Assembly: GCF_000741295.1 (NCBI RefSeq)
Contig: NZ_JGZG01000005.1
Coordinates: forward strand, 310,001 to 374,000
Length of the DNA: 64,000 nt
Source: Bifidobacterium pseudolongum subsp. globosum
GTDB lineage: Bacteria; Actinomycetota; Actinomycetes; Actinomycetales; Bifidobacteriaceae
Direction of reading: 5' to 3'
Part shown: positions 16,744-55,606 of the stretch, piece after piece
Layout of the letters: each line of letters begins with the position of its first letter
How positions within the stretch are numbered: position 1 is the stretch's first letter
The notes under the pieces: generated by a model
Told to the model about the DNA's origin: nothing
The model's database searches: none
What the model saw: only the letters and a program-made list of their open reading frames with translations
Position numbers and translations under genes: made by a program

Positions 16744-18438
16744 ATGCGCGCACCATGGACGGACCGGGAACACGGCGGCCGTGACATGCGTCTGCTGCCG
16801 GCGGCCGCAGGCATGTGGACGGCCGCGCTCGCCGCCGCACCGCTCATGCAGCCCCACAACACGCGCACCCTGATCACGGTGGCGGCCGTCCTCGTGTGCT
16901 CGGTGGGTGGCATGGCGCTCGCGGCATGGATGGCGCATGTGACCCGCAACCATGCCGCCTTCGCACGCCGCGCCGCGACCGTCCTGATGCTCGCACTCGC
17001 AGGCCTGCTGCTCGGCGCCATGGCCGCTGTGACCCACACGGCCATGCGCGCCGCCGACCCGGTGTATGCGGCGAGCGCACAGGGAGTGGCCCTGGGCATC
17101 TACCGTGTGCGCACCACCGCACCCGCCCTGCGCGCCAATGACCGCGAGGCCGATTGTGCCGTCGACGTGACGGTCGAACAAGCGGTGTTGGACGGCGTGC
17201 AACAGTCCGCGCACGCATCAGCGACACTGCAGGCGAGCGGGCGCGTGTGCGCCATGATCGAACAAGGCGCGCGCTACACCGTGCGTGGCGCCGCACGGCG
17301 CGCCGCCTGGGACACGACCCGCATCATCCTCACCGCGCACACGGCCACCTTACATGGGGCGGCGCCCCCATGGTGGCATGGCGTCGAAACACTCCGCGCA
17401 CGTTTCTTCGCCGTCACCGCCCGCTTGGACGACCAGGGCCGTGTGCTCGTGCCTGGCGTCACCCTCGGCCTGCTCGGACAGGACATCCCCACCGGCGCCA
17501 GCGTCGACGAGACCTACACACGCCAACTGGAAGAGCGTTGCAAGCAAGCGGGCATCATGCACGTCATGGCCGTGTCGGGCGGCCACTACGCGCTCATCGC
17601 ACGCCTGTGCACCATCATCGGCGCCTTGGCGCGCCTGCCGCGTGGGGTGCTCGCCATGCTACGCCTCGCCACCGCCGGAATATTGACAATGCTGCTCGTG
17701 CCCGGGCAGTCGGTCACGCGCGCACTGGCCATGAGCGTGTTCGCCGTCGGCTATGCACTGTGCAAACGCCCGTGCCAGACGATGCACGCGCTGTGCTGGA
17801 CCACCATGTTCGCGTTGTTGACCGACCCCACGCGCGCCGCGAACTTCGGCTTCGCCCTGTCATGCTCCGCTGTGTGCGGCATTGCCATGATGATGCCACG
17901 CATCCAGGCATGGTGTGCACGGTGGATGCCACGTGGCGCCGCGCAGGCGCTCGCAATGACGGTGAGCGCGCAGGTGTTCACCCTGCCGGTACAGATCCTC
18001 ATCAGCCCGCAGGTGCCCCTCTGGTCCATCCCGGCGAACCTCATGGTGGCGCCGTTCACCGATCTGGCCACCATCACCGGTCTGCTCGCCTGCCTCTGCG
18101 CCACAGTGTGCCCGCCAGTCGCCCCCATGTTCGCCACGGTCGCCTCATGGTGCACACGTCCAATCGCTGTGGCGGCCGGCCTGTTCGGCACGGCGGACGA
18201 TGGATGCATCCCGTGGGCGCAAGGGGCCCCGGGTATGCTGCTCATGCTCGGCGCGCTCACCGTCGGCACTGCCCTGCTCATCGCACTGCACCACCTGCAC
18301 GCCATCATCCTCCTGGTCCGCCGCCGGGGCCGGCGCGGGAGGCTGCACGCCATGCATCCAGTGGACGCTGCACGCCGGTGGTGGCGGCAGACGGCCACCA
18401 TGCTCATGGACATACCATGGAGCCACAGCAAGGAGTGA
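16744..18438 (+). CDS. comEC: ComEC/Rec2-type DNA-uptake channel, competence domain only
   Basis: A 564-residue polytopic membrane protein. It has two or three N-terminal helices, an exported soluble region with paired cysteines (residues about 135-200) and then the competence domain with HVMAVSGGHYALIARL, the counterpart of the ComEC VSGLH motif. It stops after the last membrane helices: the C-terminal metallo-beta-lactamase domain of long ComEC proteins is absent. It begins one base after the comEA stop and is followed by holA, the usual actinobacterial comEA-comEC-holA order. It would pass single-stranded DNA across the membrane. Confidence 0.88.
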   Translation: MRAPWTDREHGGRDMRLLPAAAGMWTAALAAAPLMQPHNTRTLITVAAVLVCSVGGMALAAWMAHVTRNHAAFARRAATVLMLALAGLLLGAMAAVTHTAMRAADPVYAASAQGVALGIYRVRTTAPALRANDREADCAVDVTVEQAVLDGVQQSAHASATLQASGRVCAMIEQGARYTVRGAARRAAWDTTRIILTAHTATLHGAAPPWWHGVETLRARFFAVTARLDDQGRVLVPGVTLGLLGQDIPTGASVDETYTRQLEERCKQAGIMHVMAVSGGHYALIARLCTIIGALARLPRGVLAMLRLATAGILTMLLVPGQSVTRALAMSVFAVGYALCKRPCQTMHALCWTTMFALLTDPTRAANFGFALSCSAVCGIAMMMPRIQAWCARWMPRGAAQALAMTVSAQVFTLPVQILISPQVPLWSIPANLMVAPFTDLATITGLLACLCATVCPPVAPMFATVASWCTRPIAVAAGLFGTADDGCIPWAQGAPGMLLMLGALTVGTALLIALHHLHAIILLVRRRGRRGRLHAMHPVDAARRWWRQTATMLMDIPWSHSKE

Positions 18439-18444
18439 ACACGC

Positions 18445-19449
18445 ATGCGGATTGTCCAACGATACGGCGACATTGAACATATGGCAGCACACCACACACC
18501 CCGCTGCGTCATCATCCGCGGCGGCGACGAATACCTCAACCGCCTCGCCGCACGGCGCCACGCCCGTCAATGGCTTGACGCCCACGCGGACAGCGAATTG
18601 ATCGAACTGGAAGCCAAAGACAGCAACCGATACGATTTCGAGGAAGCCACAAGCCCCTCGCTGCTCAGCCCCAGCGCCGCCGTCATCGTCAACCACGCCG
18701 AAGACTGCGACGAACCACTCGCGCAAGCCATCACCGACCATTGCCGCAACCCCCACGGCGAAGCCGACGGCTCCCTCGTCATCGTCAGCCACAACGGGTC
18801 AGCCAAAGGCAAACGGCTGATCGACAGCCTCACCCGCCTGCACGCTGTCCTCGAGGACATCCCCAAACTTGACAAACCACAGGCACGCCTCAACTTCACC
18901 CTCCAAGGCTTCGAACAACGCGGCCGCACCGTGGAACCACAAGCAGCCCAACAGCTCGCCAGCGTGCTCGGCGAACGCCCGGGCGAACTCGCCGCCATGA
19001 TCGAACAGCTCTGCTTCGACTTCGACACCAACCCCATCACCCTGAGCCAAGTCAACCAATACCTGATATCCGACCCTCAGGTCACCGGATTCGCCATGGC
19101 CGACCAGGCGCTCGCCGGCCATGGCGCCCAAGCCGTCATCATGATGCGCTCCGCCATCAGCCAAGGCACCGAACCCATCGCGCTCATCGGCGCGCTCGCG
19201 ATGAAACTGCGCTCCATGGCCAAAGCCTCGGCCGTACGCGCCGGAACCATCACACAAGCCGAATCGAACATGGCGCCATGGATGCTGCGCAACGCGTCCA
19301 AACAGCTGCCCGGATGGACATCCGCGGGCATGGCGCAATGCTTCAGCCAGCTCGCATGGGCGGACGAACAATGCAAAACCAACGGTTCGGACCCCATCTA
19401 CGCACTCGAACACGTCATCGAACTCATCAGCCGCAAAGGCATCGCATAA
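18445..19449 (+). CDS. holA: DNA polymerase III, delta subunit
   Basis: Clamp-loader subunit that opens the beta sliding clamp. The 334-residue length fits. The N terminus has RCVIIRGGDEYLNRLAARR, where the degenerate P-loop region sits, and the C-terminal collar domain includes ALIGALAMKLRSM and the terminal YALEHVIELI. AAGGAG sits ten bases ahead of ATG 18445; ATG 18481 is possible. The gene is C-rich and G-poor on this strand, as are the next three. Confidence 0.9.
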   Translation: MRIVQRYGDIEHMAAHHTPRCVIIRGGDEYLNRLAARRHARQWLDAHADSELIELEAKDSNRYDFEEATSPSLLSPSAAVIVNHAEDCDEPLAQAITDHCRNPHGEADGSLVIVSHNGSAKGKRLIDSLTRLHAVLEDIPKLDKPQARLNFTLQGFEQRGRTVEPQAAQQLASVLGERPGELAAMIEQLCFDFDTNPITLSQVNQYLISDPQVTGFAMADQALAGHGAQAVIMMRSAISQGTEPIALIGALAMKLRSMAKASAVRAGTITQAESNMAPWMLRNASKQLPGWTSAGMAQCFSQLAWADEQCKTNGSDPIYALEHVIELISRKGIA

Positions 19450-19458
19450 GGACACCGC

Positions 19459-20064
19459 ATGCACACCACCATCACCGCTGCAACCGCCACCGACATGCGC
19501 GCATTGGGCGCCCATCTCGCCAACCACATGCACGGGGGAGAAGTCATCCTCCTGTCGGGGCCATTGGGCGCCGGCAAAACCACCTTCGCCCAGGGATTCG
19601 GCGCCGGGCTGGGCATTGACGAGCCAATCGTCTCGCCCACCTTCACCATCGCCCGCGAACTCGACGGCCACTTCGCCGATGGCACGCCCGCACACCTGAT
19701 CCATGTGGACGCCTACCGGCTCGGCGGCACCGACTACGCGCCCGGGCAAGACAGCGTGAACCGCCTCCTCGACGAACTCGAAAGCCTCGGCCTCGATGAG
19801 GAACTCGAAGAACCCGGCACCCATACCGTCATCCTCATGGAATGGGGCGAGCAAATGGCCGCGGCGCTCGCCGACGAACGACTCGAAGTGCATATCGACC
19901 GGCCCTTCCGCGCAACGGCGCCAGATGCTACGGCGGCGGACATCGCCGTGGAACCCACAAGCGCGGGCGAACGCATCGTCACGCTCACGCCCATCGGCCC
20001 CTACTGGGACCGGTTCATGCACGATCTTCCCGACATGCCAGTCACGGGGGAGCGGCAGGCGTAA
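19459..20064 (+). CDS. tsaE: tRNA t6A37 threonylcarbamoyladenosine biosynthesis ATPase TsaE
   Basis: ATPase that works with TsaB and TsaD in making N6-threonylcarbamoyladenosine at position 37 of ANN-decoding tRNAs. The P-loop GPLGAGKTT is at residues 34-42, followed by SPTFTIARE and HVDAYRLGG. At 201 residues it is longer than E. coli TsaE (153), through an insert rich in D, E and L around residues 95-120. It starts nine bases after holA and precedes tsaB, rimI and tsaD. Confidence 0.93.
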   Translation: MHTTITAATATDMRALGAHLANHMHGGEVILLSGPLGAGKTTFAQGFGAGLGIDEPIVSPTFTIARELDGHFADGTPAHLIHVDAYRLGGTDYAPGQDSVNRLLDELESLGLDEELEEPGTHTVILMEWGEQMAAALADERLEVHIDRPFRATAPDATAADIAVEPTSAGERIVTLTPIGPYWDRFMHDLPDMPVTGERQA

Positions 20065-20122
20065 CGCCCCACCCGCCACCAGCAACCAACCACACCAGTT
20101 ACACAACCGCAGGGAACCCACC

Positions 20123-20938
20123 ATGCACACACTCGTCATCGACACCGCATACGGATCCACGGTCGGCATCGTCGGCCACGAACCCATCCAGGAACAGAAC
20201 TCACGCACCCACGTCGAACGCCTCCAAGTGGACATCGCCGCCGCCTGCGCGCAAGCCGGCATCACCCCGCAGGATCTGGACCGCATCGTCGTCGGCACCG
20301 GTCCGGCGCCCTTCACCGGCCTGCGCGCCGGAATCGTCACCGCACGGGCCATCGCCTTCGCCACCGGAGCCGAGCTGCTCGGCCAAGACGACCTCGAACC
20401 CTGCGCCGCGGCCATGGACGCCGCACGCCGCCACAACCCCCGAATCACCACGCTGTTGCCAGCGCAGGCCATGGCAGCCATCGACGCGACCGCCACATGC
20501 ACACCCCTCACCCTCGCCGTCAACGACGCGCGCCGCAAACAGCTCTACTTCGCGCTCTACAGCCACACCAGCGGCGCACCAACCACAGTGATTCCCATGG
20601 ACATCGACTACCCCGAGCACATCGCCATACGCGTCAACCACGCCATACGAGACCTCCAACAGCACCACCCTGGCACCCAATACACCATCGACATCATGGG
20701 CCACGGCGCCCACACCTACACGCAACACTGGGCCGCCCTGCACAACCCCGGCGCCATCCTCGACCTCACCGCGCTCGACCTCGGCGCCACCGGGCTCGCT
20801 CTCTTCGCTCACCTCGCCGAGAACCGCACCACCGCGCAACCCGTCGAGCCCCTCTACCTGCGCCGCCCAGACGTCAGCGTACCCAACCCACTCAAACACG
20901 TCCTCAACCACGCGCCAGCCACCAAGGACGCCGCATGA
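20123..20938 (+). CDS. tsaB: tRNA t6A37 biosynthesis protein TsaB
   Basis: Non-catalytic partner that scaffolds TsaD and TsaE. The ASKHA-fold N terminus reads HTLVIDTAYGSTVGIV and is followed by VVGTGPAPFTGLRAG, the family's diagnostic GPGSFTGLR equivalent. Length 271 residues. The open frame continues far upstream as an out-of-frame shadow of tsaE; ATG 20123 has CAGGGA upstream. It overlaps rimI by four bases (ATGA). The first 100 residues are well conserved and the C-terminal half is divergent, as usual for TsaB. Confidence 0.92.
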   Translation: MHTLVIDTAYGSTVGIVGHEPIQEQNSRTHVERLQVDIAAACAQAGITPQDLDRIVVGTGPAPFTGLRAGIVTARAIAFATGAELLGQDDLEPCAAAMDAARRHNPRITTLLPAQAMAAIDATATCTPLTLAVNDARRKQLYFALYSHTSGAPTTVIPMDIDYPEHIAIRVNHAIRDLQQHHPGTQYTIDIMGHGAHTYTQHWAALHNPGAILDLTALDLGATGLALFAHLAENRTTAQPVEPLYLRRPDVSVPNPLKHVLNHAPATKDAA

Positions 20939-21435
20939 TCGTCGACCTCGCCACCCTCGACCAAGACCAGGCCATCACGCAGATCAGCCAACTCGAATCC
21001 CAACTCTTCGGCCCCAGCGCATGGAGCCCCAACGCCATCCGTCAGGAACTCAACGCGCCGGCACGCGCCTACTGGGCCGACATCGACCCCGCAACCACCA
21101 CCGGCATTCCCGCCATACGCGGATACGCCGGCACTTGGTTCGACGGCTACGACACCCAGATCATGACCATAGGGGTGGCGCCACAACACCAACACCACGG
21201 CATCGGCCAGGCACTCCTCCGACAGATCATCGACCAGGCCAACGCCGACCACGCCGAACGCATCCTCCTTGAAGTGCGCGTCGACAACACGCCGGCACTC
21301 GCCCTCTACGCCAACAACGGATTCACGCGCCTCGGCCTGCGCAAACGCTACTACCAGCCCGAAGGCATAGACGCGTACACCATGAGCCTCGACCTCAACC
21401 CCCGTACCATCGGATTCCAACCCACCCACGCCTGA
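20935..21435 (+). CDS. rimI: GNAT N-acetyltransferase, RimI type
   Basis: In E. coli RimI acetylates the N-terminal alanine of ribosomal protein S18. The 166-residue protein has the GNAT acetyl-CoA loop QHQHHGIGQALL, then LLEVRVDNTPALALYANNGF, the RimI hallmark, and ends in a YYQPEGIDAYTM segment. It starts at the ATG overlapping the tsaB stop and lies 18 bases ahead of tsaD, the common actinobacterial order. The ribosomal target is by family analogy. Confidence 0.92.
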   Translation: MIVDLATLDQDQAITQISQLESQLFGPSAWSPNAIRQELNAPARAYWADIDPATTTGIPAIRGYAGTWFDGYDTQIMTIGVAPQHQHHGIGQALLRQIIDQANADHAERILLEVRVDNTPALALYANNGFTRLGLRKRYYQPEGIDAYTMSLDLNPRTIGFQPTHA

Positions 21436-21453
21436 CCACCACACGGAGCCACC

Positions 21454-22497
21454 ATGAGCCAACCAACCATCCTCGGCATCGAATCAACATGCGACGAAAC
21501 TGCAGCCGCCGTCGTCACCGGACACACCCTGCGATCCAACGTCGTCGCCTCATCCATGGACGAACACGCACGCTACGGCGGCGTCATCCCCGAAATCGCC
21601 TCACGCGCCCACGCCCAGGCCTTCACCCCGGTCGTAAGCAAAGCACTCTCCGACGCCGGTCTCGACCTGGCCGACATCGACGCCATTGCGGTCTCCGCCG
21701 GACCAGGGCTGGCCGGATGCCTCGCCGTCGGCGTCTCCGGCGCCAAGGCGCTCGCATGGGCGGCCGGCAAACCCATCTACGGCGTCAACCACGTCATCGG
21801 TCATGTGGCTGTCACACAGTTGCAGTTCGGTGCGCTACCCGCCAACACGATGGCGCTCATCGTCTCCGGCGGCCATACGTCATTGCTGCATGCCGATGAC
21901 ATCGCACGGCATATCGACGTGGTGGGCACCACGCTCGACGACGCCGCGGGCGAATGCTTCGACAAGGTGGCACGACTGCTTGGTTTCCCCTATCCGGGCG
22001 GCCCGCACATCGATGAGCACGCGCGCCGGGGCGACCCCCATGCGATCCGTGTGCCGCAGGGGCTGACCCAAGGCAACGCCGGCAAACGCCACCCTTACGA
22101 TTTCAGTTTCTCAGGCGTCAAGACAGCCGTGGCGCGGTGGATCGAACAACGTCAAGCCGCGGGTGAAGCGGTGCCGGTCGACGACGTGTGCGCCTCGCTC
22201 GCCGCATCGGTGGCCGATGTGCTCGCCACGAAGGCGATGCGGGGGTGTGAACAGTACGGTTCGGACACGCTCATCGTCGGCGGCGGGTTCTCCGCGAACT
22301 CGCAATTGCGTGTGGCGCTGCTCGAGCAAGGGGAACGGCACGGTGTGGATGTGCGCTTGCCCGAGCGCGCGCTGTGCACCGACAACGGCGCCATGGTCGC
22401 CATGCTCGGTGTGAACCTTGTGGAAGCCGGTGTGCACCCGTCACCGTTGGATTTCCCGATTGATTCGGCGATGCCCCTTACCCGAATCTCCATGTAA
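21454..22497 (+). CDS. tsaD: tRNA N6-adenosine threonylcarbamoyltransferase TsaD
   Basis: Catalytic subunit that transfers the threonylcarbamoyl group to A37 of tRNA. The 347-residue protein carries GIESTCDETAAAV at the N terminus, the metal-binding HVIGH motif at 113-117, IVSGGHTSL and a late GGGFSANSQLR. Oddly, codon usage changes at about residue 115: before it, third positions are mostly C and G is rare on this strand, as in tsaE, tsaB and rimI; after it, G and T endings are common. The protein itself looks intact across that point. Confidence 0.96.
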   Translation: MSQPTILGIESTCDETAAAVVTGHTLRSNVVASSMDEHARYGGVIPEIASRAHAQAFTPVVSKALSDAGLDLADIDAIAVSAGPGLAGCLAVGVSGAKALAWAAGKPIYGVNHVIGHVAVTQLQFGALPANTMALIVSGGHTSLLHADDIARHIDVVGTTLDDAAGECFDKVARLLGFPYPGGPHIDEHARRGDPHAIRVPQGLTQGNAGKRHPYDFSFSGVKTAVARWIEQRQAAGEAVPVDDVCASLAASVADVLATKAMRGCEQYGSDTLIVGGGFSANSQLRVALLEQGERHGVDVRLPERALCTDNGAMVAMLGVNLVEAGVHPSPLDFPIDSAMPLTRISM

Positions 22498-22584: not shown

Positions 22585-22660
<76 letters not shown>

Positions 22661-22663
22661 CCA

Positions 22664-22686
22664 AGCCGCCTCCGGGCGGCTTTTTT
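22664..22686 (+). terminator. Rho-independent terminator of tRNA-Asn copy 1
   Basis: AGCCGCC/GGCGGCT stem with loop TCCG, followed by six T residues (22681-22686). Confidence 0.9.
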
Positions 22687-23044: not shown

Positions 23045-23120
<76 letters not shown>

Positions 23121-23123
23121 CCA

Positions 23124-23146
23124 AGCCGCCTTCGGGCGGCTTTTTT
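23124..23146 (+). terminator. Rho-independent terminator of tRNA-Asn copy 2
   Basis: AGCCGCC/GGCGGCT stem with a stable TTCG tetraloop, followed by six T residues. Confidence 0.9.
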
Positions 23147-55534: not shown

Positions 55535-55606
55535 GAACGGATATGCCATATATCGCTAATCTGACATAACGTACATTATCGGCTAAACGGGGATTACTGT
55601 GAATCC

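What the first reader, a model, noticed from the sequence alone, without database searches (positions are those of the whole stretch)
18445..22497. Strand-composition break inside tsaD
From holA to the middle of tsaD the plus strand is C-rich and G-poor. The 60 bases from 20641 contain 25 C and 10 G; the 60 bases from 22201 contain 15 C and 25 G. The change falls near 21790-21850, about residue 115, just at the metal-binding motif. A switch inside an intact gene suggests recombination between lineages or different mutational histories for the two parts.
Basis: partly seen in the sequence, partly recalled or inferred. Interest (0 to 1): 0.5.

Follow-up and report, generated by a model that had tools for sequence, protein, structure and literature searches.

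The report
One-strand A+C tract ending inside tsaD
A 3.3-kilobase stretch of this bacterial chromosome has lost G and T from one DNA strand and stops abruptly inside a gene; it probably arose in place rather than being swapped in, and similar stretches arose repeatedly at the same spot in related species, which points to a local, strand-specific process that is not yet understood.

Summary
At degenerate third positions of tsaD, A+C falls from 0.88 to 0.52 at codon 115 (support 111-117; 0 of 20,000 permutations). The left edge is the holA start. The tract (ca. 18450-21800) is the strongest A+C deviation in 584 kb of the host genome.

Import is not supported for this lineage. leuS, holA+tsaE, tsaB+rimI and tsaD 117-347 all put it in the same eight-member clade, though the nearest neighbour inside it varies. 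A+C-rich holA needs 7 changes on both the species-proxy and the tract tree. One common origin is rejected (AU p 9e-62, 40 chosen rows). A weaker 5' enrichment of tsaD occurs in 92 of 101 loci.

The bias follows the DNA strand, not coding sense: it covers a spacer, an inverted comEC (L070) and a minus-strand gene (L134-L136). Right edges differ between lineages but recur at the same homologous codons in unrelated ones, unexplained.

Best guess (0.4): asymmetric mutation or fixation along a leftward, antisense transcription unit, perhaps R-loop-reinforced, starting at the right edge. No promoter signal or transcript was found. Selection for G/U-poor RNA is the main rival.

The parts
18445..21798 (+). 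A+C-rich (G/T-poor) tract on the + strand, sharp at both ends
   Evidence: changepoints 18453 (18387-18501) and 21798 (21786-21804); maximum of 584 kb
21786..21804 (.). right edge of the tract, tsaD codons 111-117 (NHVIGH)
   Evidence: codon 114-115 also in L038, L039, L060, L123
18445..19449 (+). holA (DNA polymerase III delta), inside the tract
   Evidence: PF21694; AC3 0.80
19459..20064 (+). tsaE, inside the tract
   Evidence: PF02367; AC3 0.70
20065..20122 (.). non-coding spacer tsaE-tsaB, A+C 0.83
   Evidence: pooled 0.67 in 16 of 19 tract taxa against 0.49 in 64 of 82 others (spacers of 20-160 bases only)
20123..20938 (+). tsaB, inside the tract
   Evidence: PF00814, residues 24-111, (name tsaB from gene order); AC3 0.82
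20935..21435 (+). rimI-like GNAT acetyltransferase, inside the tract
   Evidence: PF00583; AC3 0.81
21454..22497 (+). tsaD, intact; codons 1-115 inside the tract, 116-347 outside
   Evidence: PF00814 over residues 26-316
16744..18438 (+). comEC, left flank, weak bias only (AC3 0.59)
   Evidence: PF03772

Best explanation
The tract is a strand-level substitution footprint that most likely evolved in place and has evolved repeatedly at this locus in the genus. Shown: sharp edges, independence from coding sense, recurrence, and directional change G>A, G>C, T>C on the + strand of one lineage where it can be polarised. Inferred: a leftward transcript, antisense to tsaD-holA, starts at the right edge. 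Its non-template (minus) strand is left exposed, perhaps as an R-loop because the RNA is untranslated and G-rich and C-poor (so a poor Rho target). C and A on that strand are damaged or mutated, while the + strand is shielded by the hybrid and by template-strand repair. More G in the RNA then favours more R-loop, so the bias reinforces itself. In lineages where a leftward gene lies to the left, the tract runs on into that gene, as expected of a transcript that continues through it.
For: Sharp right edge and G/T loss on the + strand. Non-coding spacer biased too. In L070 comEC is inverted, lies in the tract, and its own strand is G-rich (4-fold GC skew +0.43; five other comEC -0.17 to +0.04). 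In L134-L136 a minus-strand gene upstream of holA (DUF6198, tested on the L136 protein) has own-strand AC3 0.17-0.38 in the first 120 codons of its open frame, higher further in. The tract's left edge is 78 bp (L136) and 240 bp (L135) from that frame's stop, about 315 bp from the inverted comEC's stop in L070, but in L134 the frame runs some 560 bp beyond. Third-position A+C falls leftwards in 14 of 16 taxa scored (13 at p<0.05); the taxa are not independent and the 3.4-kb span includes comEC beyond the left edge in L090 and the five loci L065, L075, L079, L088, L092. On the L134 stem (holA, tsaE, first 80 alignment columns of tsaB) GT>AC 59/73 and AC>GT 7/221, against 39/149 and 32/160 outside (p 8e-15, 2e-7).
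Against: No transcript data. No sigma70-like site in 18.0-24.2 kb (0 found, 0.9 expected). Minus-strand promoter scores at the edges are not enriched: ranks 0.10 to 1.00 against random windows in 11 taxa. Rho (112 of 112) and RNase H (110 of 112) are present regardless of tract. AC>GT is suppressed more than a pure mutation bias would easily give, which suggests a fixation bias. In WIN/L038 recent changes are 16 AC>GT and 1 GT>AC in the tract (18 and 10 outside), so nothing building the tract is seen there now. L134 and L135 show no leftward decline within holA-tsaE. No other 1.5-kb window in 584 kb of the host exceeds 0.587 or falls below 0.40, although that stretch must hold strongly transcribed genes (not identified).
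Confidence: 0.4

Rival explanations
1. Selection for G- and U-poor, unstructured RNA from the + strand, acting on synonymous sites and spacers.
For: AC>GT suppressed (7/221 against 32/160) together with raised GT>AC on the L134 stem, the mark of a fixation bias; in the five-locus group AC>GT is also lower (40/1763 against 135/3270, p 0.0005) while GT>AC is not clearly raised (9/130 against 110/2630, p 0.18). G and T are both avoided at 4-fold sites and G>C is as common as G>A. Sense RNA folds about a third more weakly inside the tract (300-base bins -23 to -38 against -40 to -56 kcal per 120 nt outside).
Against: The bias continues through genes on the opposite strand (L070 comEC, L134-L136), where the + strand is not the message. 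Edges lie in mid-gene. The bin from 21600, mostly still in the tract, folds as strongly (-45) as the outside. Recent changes in WIN/L038 erode the tract. C excess is the main Rho-target feature in the B. subtilis assay of PMC13323073 (abstract and passages seen), so such RNA should be costly.
Confidence: 0.25
2. Mosaic gene: the 5' part was imported by homologous recombination from a lineage with a different composition.
For: Recombination occurs at the locus: L046/L049 breakpoint at tsaD codon ~60 (4-fold difference 0.03 against 0.36-0.49); L060 placement. The nearest neighbour of the window's clade differs between tsaD 117-347 and the other parts. Right edges coincide at homologous codons in unrelated lineages.
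Against: Same eight-member clade for leuS, holA+tsaE, tsaB+rimI and tsaD 117-347. One-clade origin rejected. On the L134 stem the bias accrued by ordinary-scale divergence (0.40 of tsaE third positions against 0.25 outside).
Confidence: 0.07
3. A process tied to the chromosome terminus (fork convergence, over-replication, dimer resolution) leaves one strand single-stranded here.
For: tsaD lies 0.41-0.57 of a chromosome from dnaA in 21 of 24 other closed genomes, the three others not worked out; a dif-like site is 34 kb away in this genome and 124 kb away in G020.
Against: The dif-like site and the AT-skew switch lie elsewhere (window 55559) and at different distances. In this genome and G020 the operon points towards the dif-like site, so its sense strand should be the leading, G/T-rich one, the opposite of what is seen (inference).
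Confidence: 0.1
4. Codon usage or protein constraint of the tsaD 5' end and its neighbours.
For: tsaD 1-58 is A+C-richer than 117-347 at third positions in 92 of 101 loci, also in 76 of 84 non-tract loci.
Against: Explains 0.65 against 0.51, not 0.8-0.95; spacer and opposite-strand genes are biased too; mid-gene edges.
Confidence: 0.08

Closest known systems
Transcription-associated strand asymmetry (recalled)
   Same: non-template strand gains G and T; the sign fits leftward transcription
   Different: known cases (recalled) are weaker and follow sense transcription; here it is extreme, local, antisense if the model holds, and no transcript is known
Replication-associated GC/AT skew (B. longum genometrics, PMC1285363, passages seen)
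   Same: strand-level base skew
   Different: genome-scale, switches at origin and terminus; here 3 kb and of opposite sign to the inferred fork direction
Rho-driven purine bias of genes (PMC13323073, abstract and passages seen)
   Same: composition of a strand shaped over whole coding regions
   Different: that pressure avoids C excess in sense RNA; the tract has strong C excess
Composition break from horizontal transfer (recalled)
   Same: sharp change inside an intact gene
   Different: tract genes stay in the same clade; repeated origin

Membership tests
recombination mosaic | the two parts give different trees | tested here: not met
   same eight-member clade for tract genes and tsaD 117-347; tsaD 1-116 unresolved and nearest neighbour within the clade varies
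recombination mosaic | tracts trace to a common donor | tested here: not met
   AU p 9e-62, 14 of 40 rows held together; 7 changes on both trees
transcription-associated asymmetry | bias follows the DNA strand, not the reading sense | tested here: met
   L070 and L134-L136; spacer
transcription-associated asymmetry | a promoter at the sharp edge | tested here: inconclusive
   no enrichment of sigma70-like sites; weak-consensus promoters would be missed
transcription-associated asymmetry | a leftward RNA covers the tract | not testable with these tools
   no RNA data held
replication skew | switch at origin or terminus | tested here: not met
   dif-like site and AT-skew switch about 34 kb away
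gene-specific codon usage | pattern in all relatives, bounded by the gene | tested here: not met
   weak version in 92 of 101 loci, strong version (holA AC3 at least 0.74) in 17 of 101; edges in four genes

The most novel reading that the evidence does not exclude
Bacterial chromosomes can carry discrete, kilobase-scale tracts in which a self-reinforcing antisense-transcription/R-loop process rewrites one strand. Fixed sites in conserved coding sequence act as start points that different lineages use independently, so the right edges recur at the same codons.
Probability: 0.25. Interest if true: 0.8.

Novelty: new variant of a known kind. Interest (0 to 1): 0.55.

Why it matters
It shows that a sharp composition break inside an intact gene need not mean horizontal transfer; calls of recombination from composition alone would be misled. 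If the mechanism holds, such tracts are DNA records of antisense transcription or R-loops, with natural replicates across species.

Tried and rejected
A common-donor import: rejected by trees. A polar repeated motif such as FtsK-orienting sequences in the minus strand: k-mers enriched in 10 tracts look like conserved coding words (judged by eye), and C runs on the + strand are below the composition expectation. A known RNA as driver: in the window and the loci scanned (nine, eight) only tRNA genes were found, those next to tsaD reading rightwards. Minus-strand promoter at edges: no enrichment. Loss of RNase H or Rho: present almost everywhere. Shared tract DNA between lineages with the same edge: L134 against L079 third-position identity is not clearly above what two A+C-rich sequences would give (judged by eye; tsaB 1-80 is 79% identical in protein to L079 and 74% to the sister L136, so a local transfer is not excluded). 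Terminus: near, but the dif-like site is elsewhere. A wider family comparison could not be made.

To read with care: the edge-coincidence probability (3 or more pairs within 5 codons 0.001, 4 or more 0 of 200,000 draws) was computed after seeing the edges, with 9 lineage edges taken as uniform over 1,160 codons; intervals of L060, L056, L136 and L070 are 13-19 codons wide, L080 wider. WIN and L123 may share their edge by descent. In one search the segment of L132 is an artefact of 1,316 masked bases. L121 comEC and tsaE were dropped for stops. Trees hold the 83 (82) loci with leuS found, of 101.
Full report
CHECK. The genes are, left to right on the + strand, leuS, comEA, comEC, holA (18445-19449), tsaE (19459-20064), tsaB (20123-20938), a rimI-like acetyltransferase (20935-21435) and tsaD (21454-22497) (leuS and comEA named from memory, not tested). 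Third-position GC/AT skews are -0.56/+0.70 in holA, -0.40/+0.40 in tsaE, -0.62/+0.73 in tsaB and -0.62/+0.68 in rimI; in tsaD 29-codon blocks the third-position GC skew is -0.55 to -0.83 over codons 1-116 and -0.40 to +0.16 after. At 4-fold sites G is 0.10-0.27 inside against 0.43 (tsaD 117-347) and 0.47 (leuS), T 0.02-0.05 against 0.08-0.11, C 0.60-0.70 against 0.39-0.42. The changepoint inside tsaD is codon 115 (111-117), log-likelihood gain 23.5; 0 of 20,000 permutations of either kind reach it. In 1.5-kb windows over 584 kb of the host genome A+C has mean 0.50 and sd 0.03; the tract reaches 0.663, nothing else exceeds 0.587.

RELATIVES. tsaD was found in 108 of 112 genomes of the genus, the window's own included. 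I took loci of up to 17 kb from 100 of the 107 others (left out: G013, G065, G077, G082, G089, G095, G109; some are cut by contig ends). A+C of third positions was tabulated for all 101. Seventeen of 101 have holA at 0.74 or more. In a scan for the best A+C segment, 17 of 101 had a gain of at least 45 with A+C of at least 0.595; in 13 of these the left edge is within 310 bp of the holA match start, in L134-L136 about 1 kb and in L070 2.3 kb further left. Weaker 5' enrichment of tsaD is general: codons 1-58 exceed 117-347 in 92 of 101 loci, means 0.66 and 0.51; leuS shows nothing of the kind (31 of 70).

NOT ONE IMPORT. On a leuS + tsaD 117-347 tree of 83 loci, A+C-rich holA needs 7 changes, and 7 again on the holA+tsaE tree of 82. 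The window, L038 and L039 form a clade with support 96-100 in all six trees, and lie in the same eight-member clade in leuS, holA+tsaE, tsaB+rimI and tsaD 117-347 (support 89-99), not in tsaD 1-116, which is short. Inside that clade the nearest neighbour varies: L040/L041 in tsaD 117-347 (83) and weakly in the proxy (67), not in leuS, holA+tsaE or tsaB+rimI; L123 in the careful holA+tsaE tree (93/88). Exchange among such kin is therefore open. On that IQ-TREE of 40 rows chosen by me, holding the 14 A+C-rich rows together costs 425 log-likelihood units. Two loci do show exchange. L046/L049 differ by 0.02-0.09 at 4-fold sites from leuS to tsaD codon 58 but by 0.36-0.49 after it, and L046 is L045-like there. 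L060 groups with L044 and L047 in leuS but not in the other gene trees. The L046 breakpoint may simply lie where homology resumes (inference).

STRAND-LEVEL. The tsaE-tsaB spacer is 0.67 A+C pooled over 16 of 19 tract taxa against 0.49 in 64 of 82 others (spacers of 20-160 bases). First codon positions are raised by 0.07 to 0.13 and second positions by 0.02 to 0.05. In L070 comEA-comEC are inverted; the tract runs over most of comEC, whose own strand is G-rich. In L134-L136 a gene lies upstream of holA on the minus strand, DUF6198 by the L136 protein; the first 120 codons of its frame have own-strand AC3 of 0.17-0.38, that is, A+C on the + strand. So neither codon use nor the message of the holA operon alone sets the bias.

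EDGES. Third-position right edges: tsaD codon 114-115 in the window's group, L123 and L060; 60-61 in L046, L049 and L056; tsaB 80-82 in five related loci (L065, L075, L079, L088, L092) and in L134/L135; holA about 218-223 in L136 and L070; rimI in L090; L080 is broad. Coincidence of this degree is unlikely by chance, but the test is post hoc. Non-tract loci show no clear general step at tsaB 80 or holA 218. I cannot explain this; fixed start points are the simplest idea.

HOW IT EVOLVED. With L127 as outgroup and L136 as sister, the L134 stem changed 32 of 40 G/T third positions of tsaE to A/C and 1 of 56 A/C to G/T; outside, 39 of 149 and 32 of 160. In tsaE the changes are G>A 11, G>C 10, T>C 10, T>A 1. 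Raised gain with suppressed loss is what a fixation bias gives; protection of the template strand could also do it. In the five-locus group A/C loss is about half of that outside (40/1763 against 135/3270, p 0.0005), while the gain is not clearly raised (9/130 against 110/2630, p 0.18). In the window and L038 the last changes are 16 losses and 1 gain in the tract (p 0.0003 against equality) and 18 and 10 outside; the loss rate is not clearly below that outside (p 0.16): here the tract looks like a relic.

MECHANISM. The sign (minus strand gaining G and T) is that of the non-template strand of leftward transcription (recalled). The sharp right edge, the leftward decline in 14 of 16 taxa (not independent, and partly the left edge itself) and left edges within about 80-315 bp of the stop of a leftward gene in L136, L135 and L070 fit a leftward unit; L134 does not fit as well. 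R-loop reinforcement is inference. Against: no promoter enrichment, no RNA data, Rho and RNase H unrelated. Selection for weakly folding RNA is the main rival: sense-strand folding is about a third weaker in most of the tract, but this follows from the composition itself.

CONTEXT. In 21 of 24 other closed genomes worked out, tsaD is 0.41-0.57 of a chromosome from dnaA. A dif-like 28-mer lies at window 55559 and in G020 at 1239913, near where AT skew changes sign. G020 has further A+C tracts within 400 kb; the host genome has none in 584 kb.

LITERATURE. Five searches of the held library (listings, capped at 10 of 60) listed no account of such tracts. PMC1285363 and PMC4782308 were seen in passages, PMC13323073 in abstract and passages.

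Noticed in passing
window 55559-55586: dif-like site ATCTGACATAACGTACATTATCGGCTAA; the same core is in G020 at 1239913, and AT skew changes sign near both. Likely the chromosome-dimer resolution site of the genus.
   Followed up: partly
window 22585-22657 and 23045-23117: Two tRNA genes (tRNA-Asn in the matching L038 locus) just right of tsaD, each followed by a near-identical terminator hairpin (22663-22682, 23123-23142); one or two tRNA-Asn copies in the nine loci scanned.
   Followed up: no
G020 1101-1104 kb (L167), 1195-1197.4 kb (L171, L172) and 1039-1041 kb (L164): Further A+C tracts in a relative, AC3 up to 0.92, over a pair that resembles a Wadjet JetC/JetD end and over a pilus-like pair (both recalled, not tested); one edge falls in mid-gene.
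   Followed up: partly
L046 and L049, tsaD codon about 60: Clean synonymous-divergence breakpoint: L046 matches L049 before it and L045 after it.
   Followed up: partly
L063 and L064: holA to tsaD nearly identical (4-fold difference 0.00-0.03) while comEC differs at 0.41 and leuS at 0.10: a recent exchange at this locus.
   Followed up: no
L134-L136 and L127, upstream of holA: A membrane-protein-like gene on the opposite strand, divergent from holA; DUF6198 by the L136 protein.
   Followed up: partly
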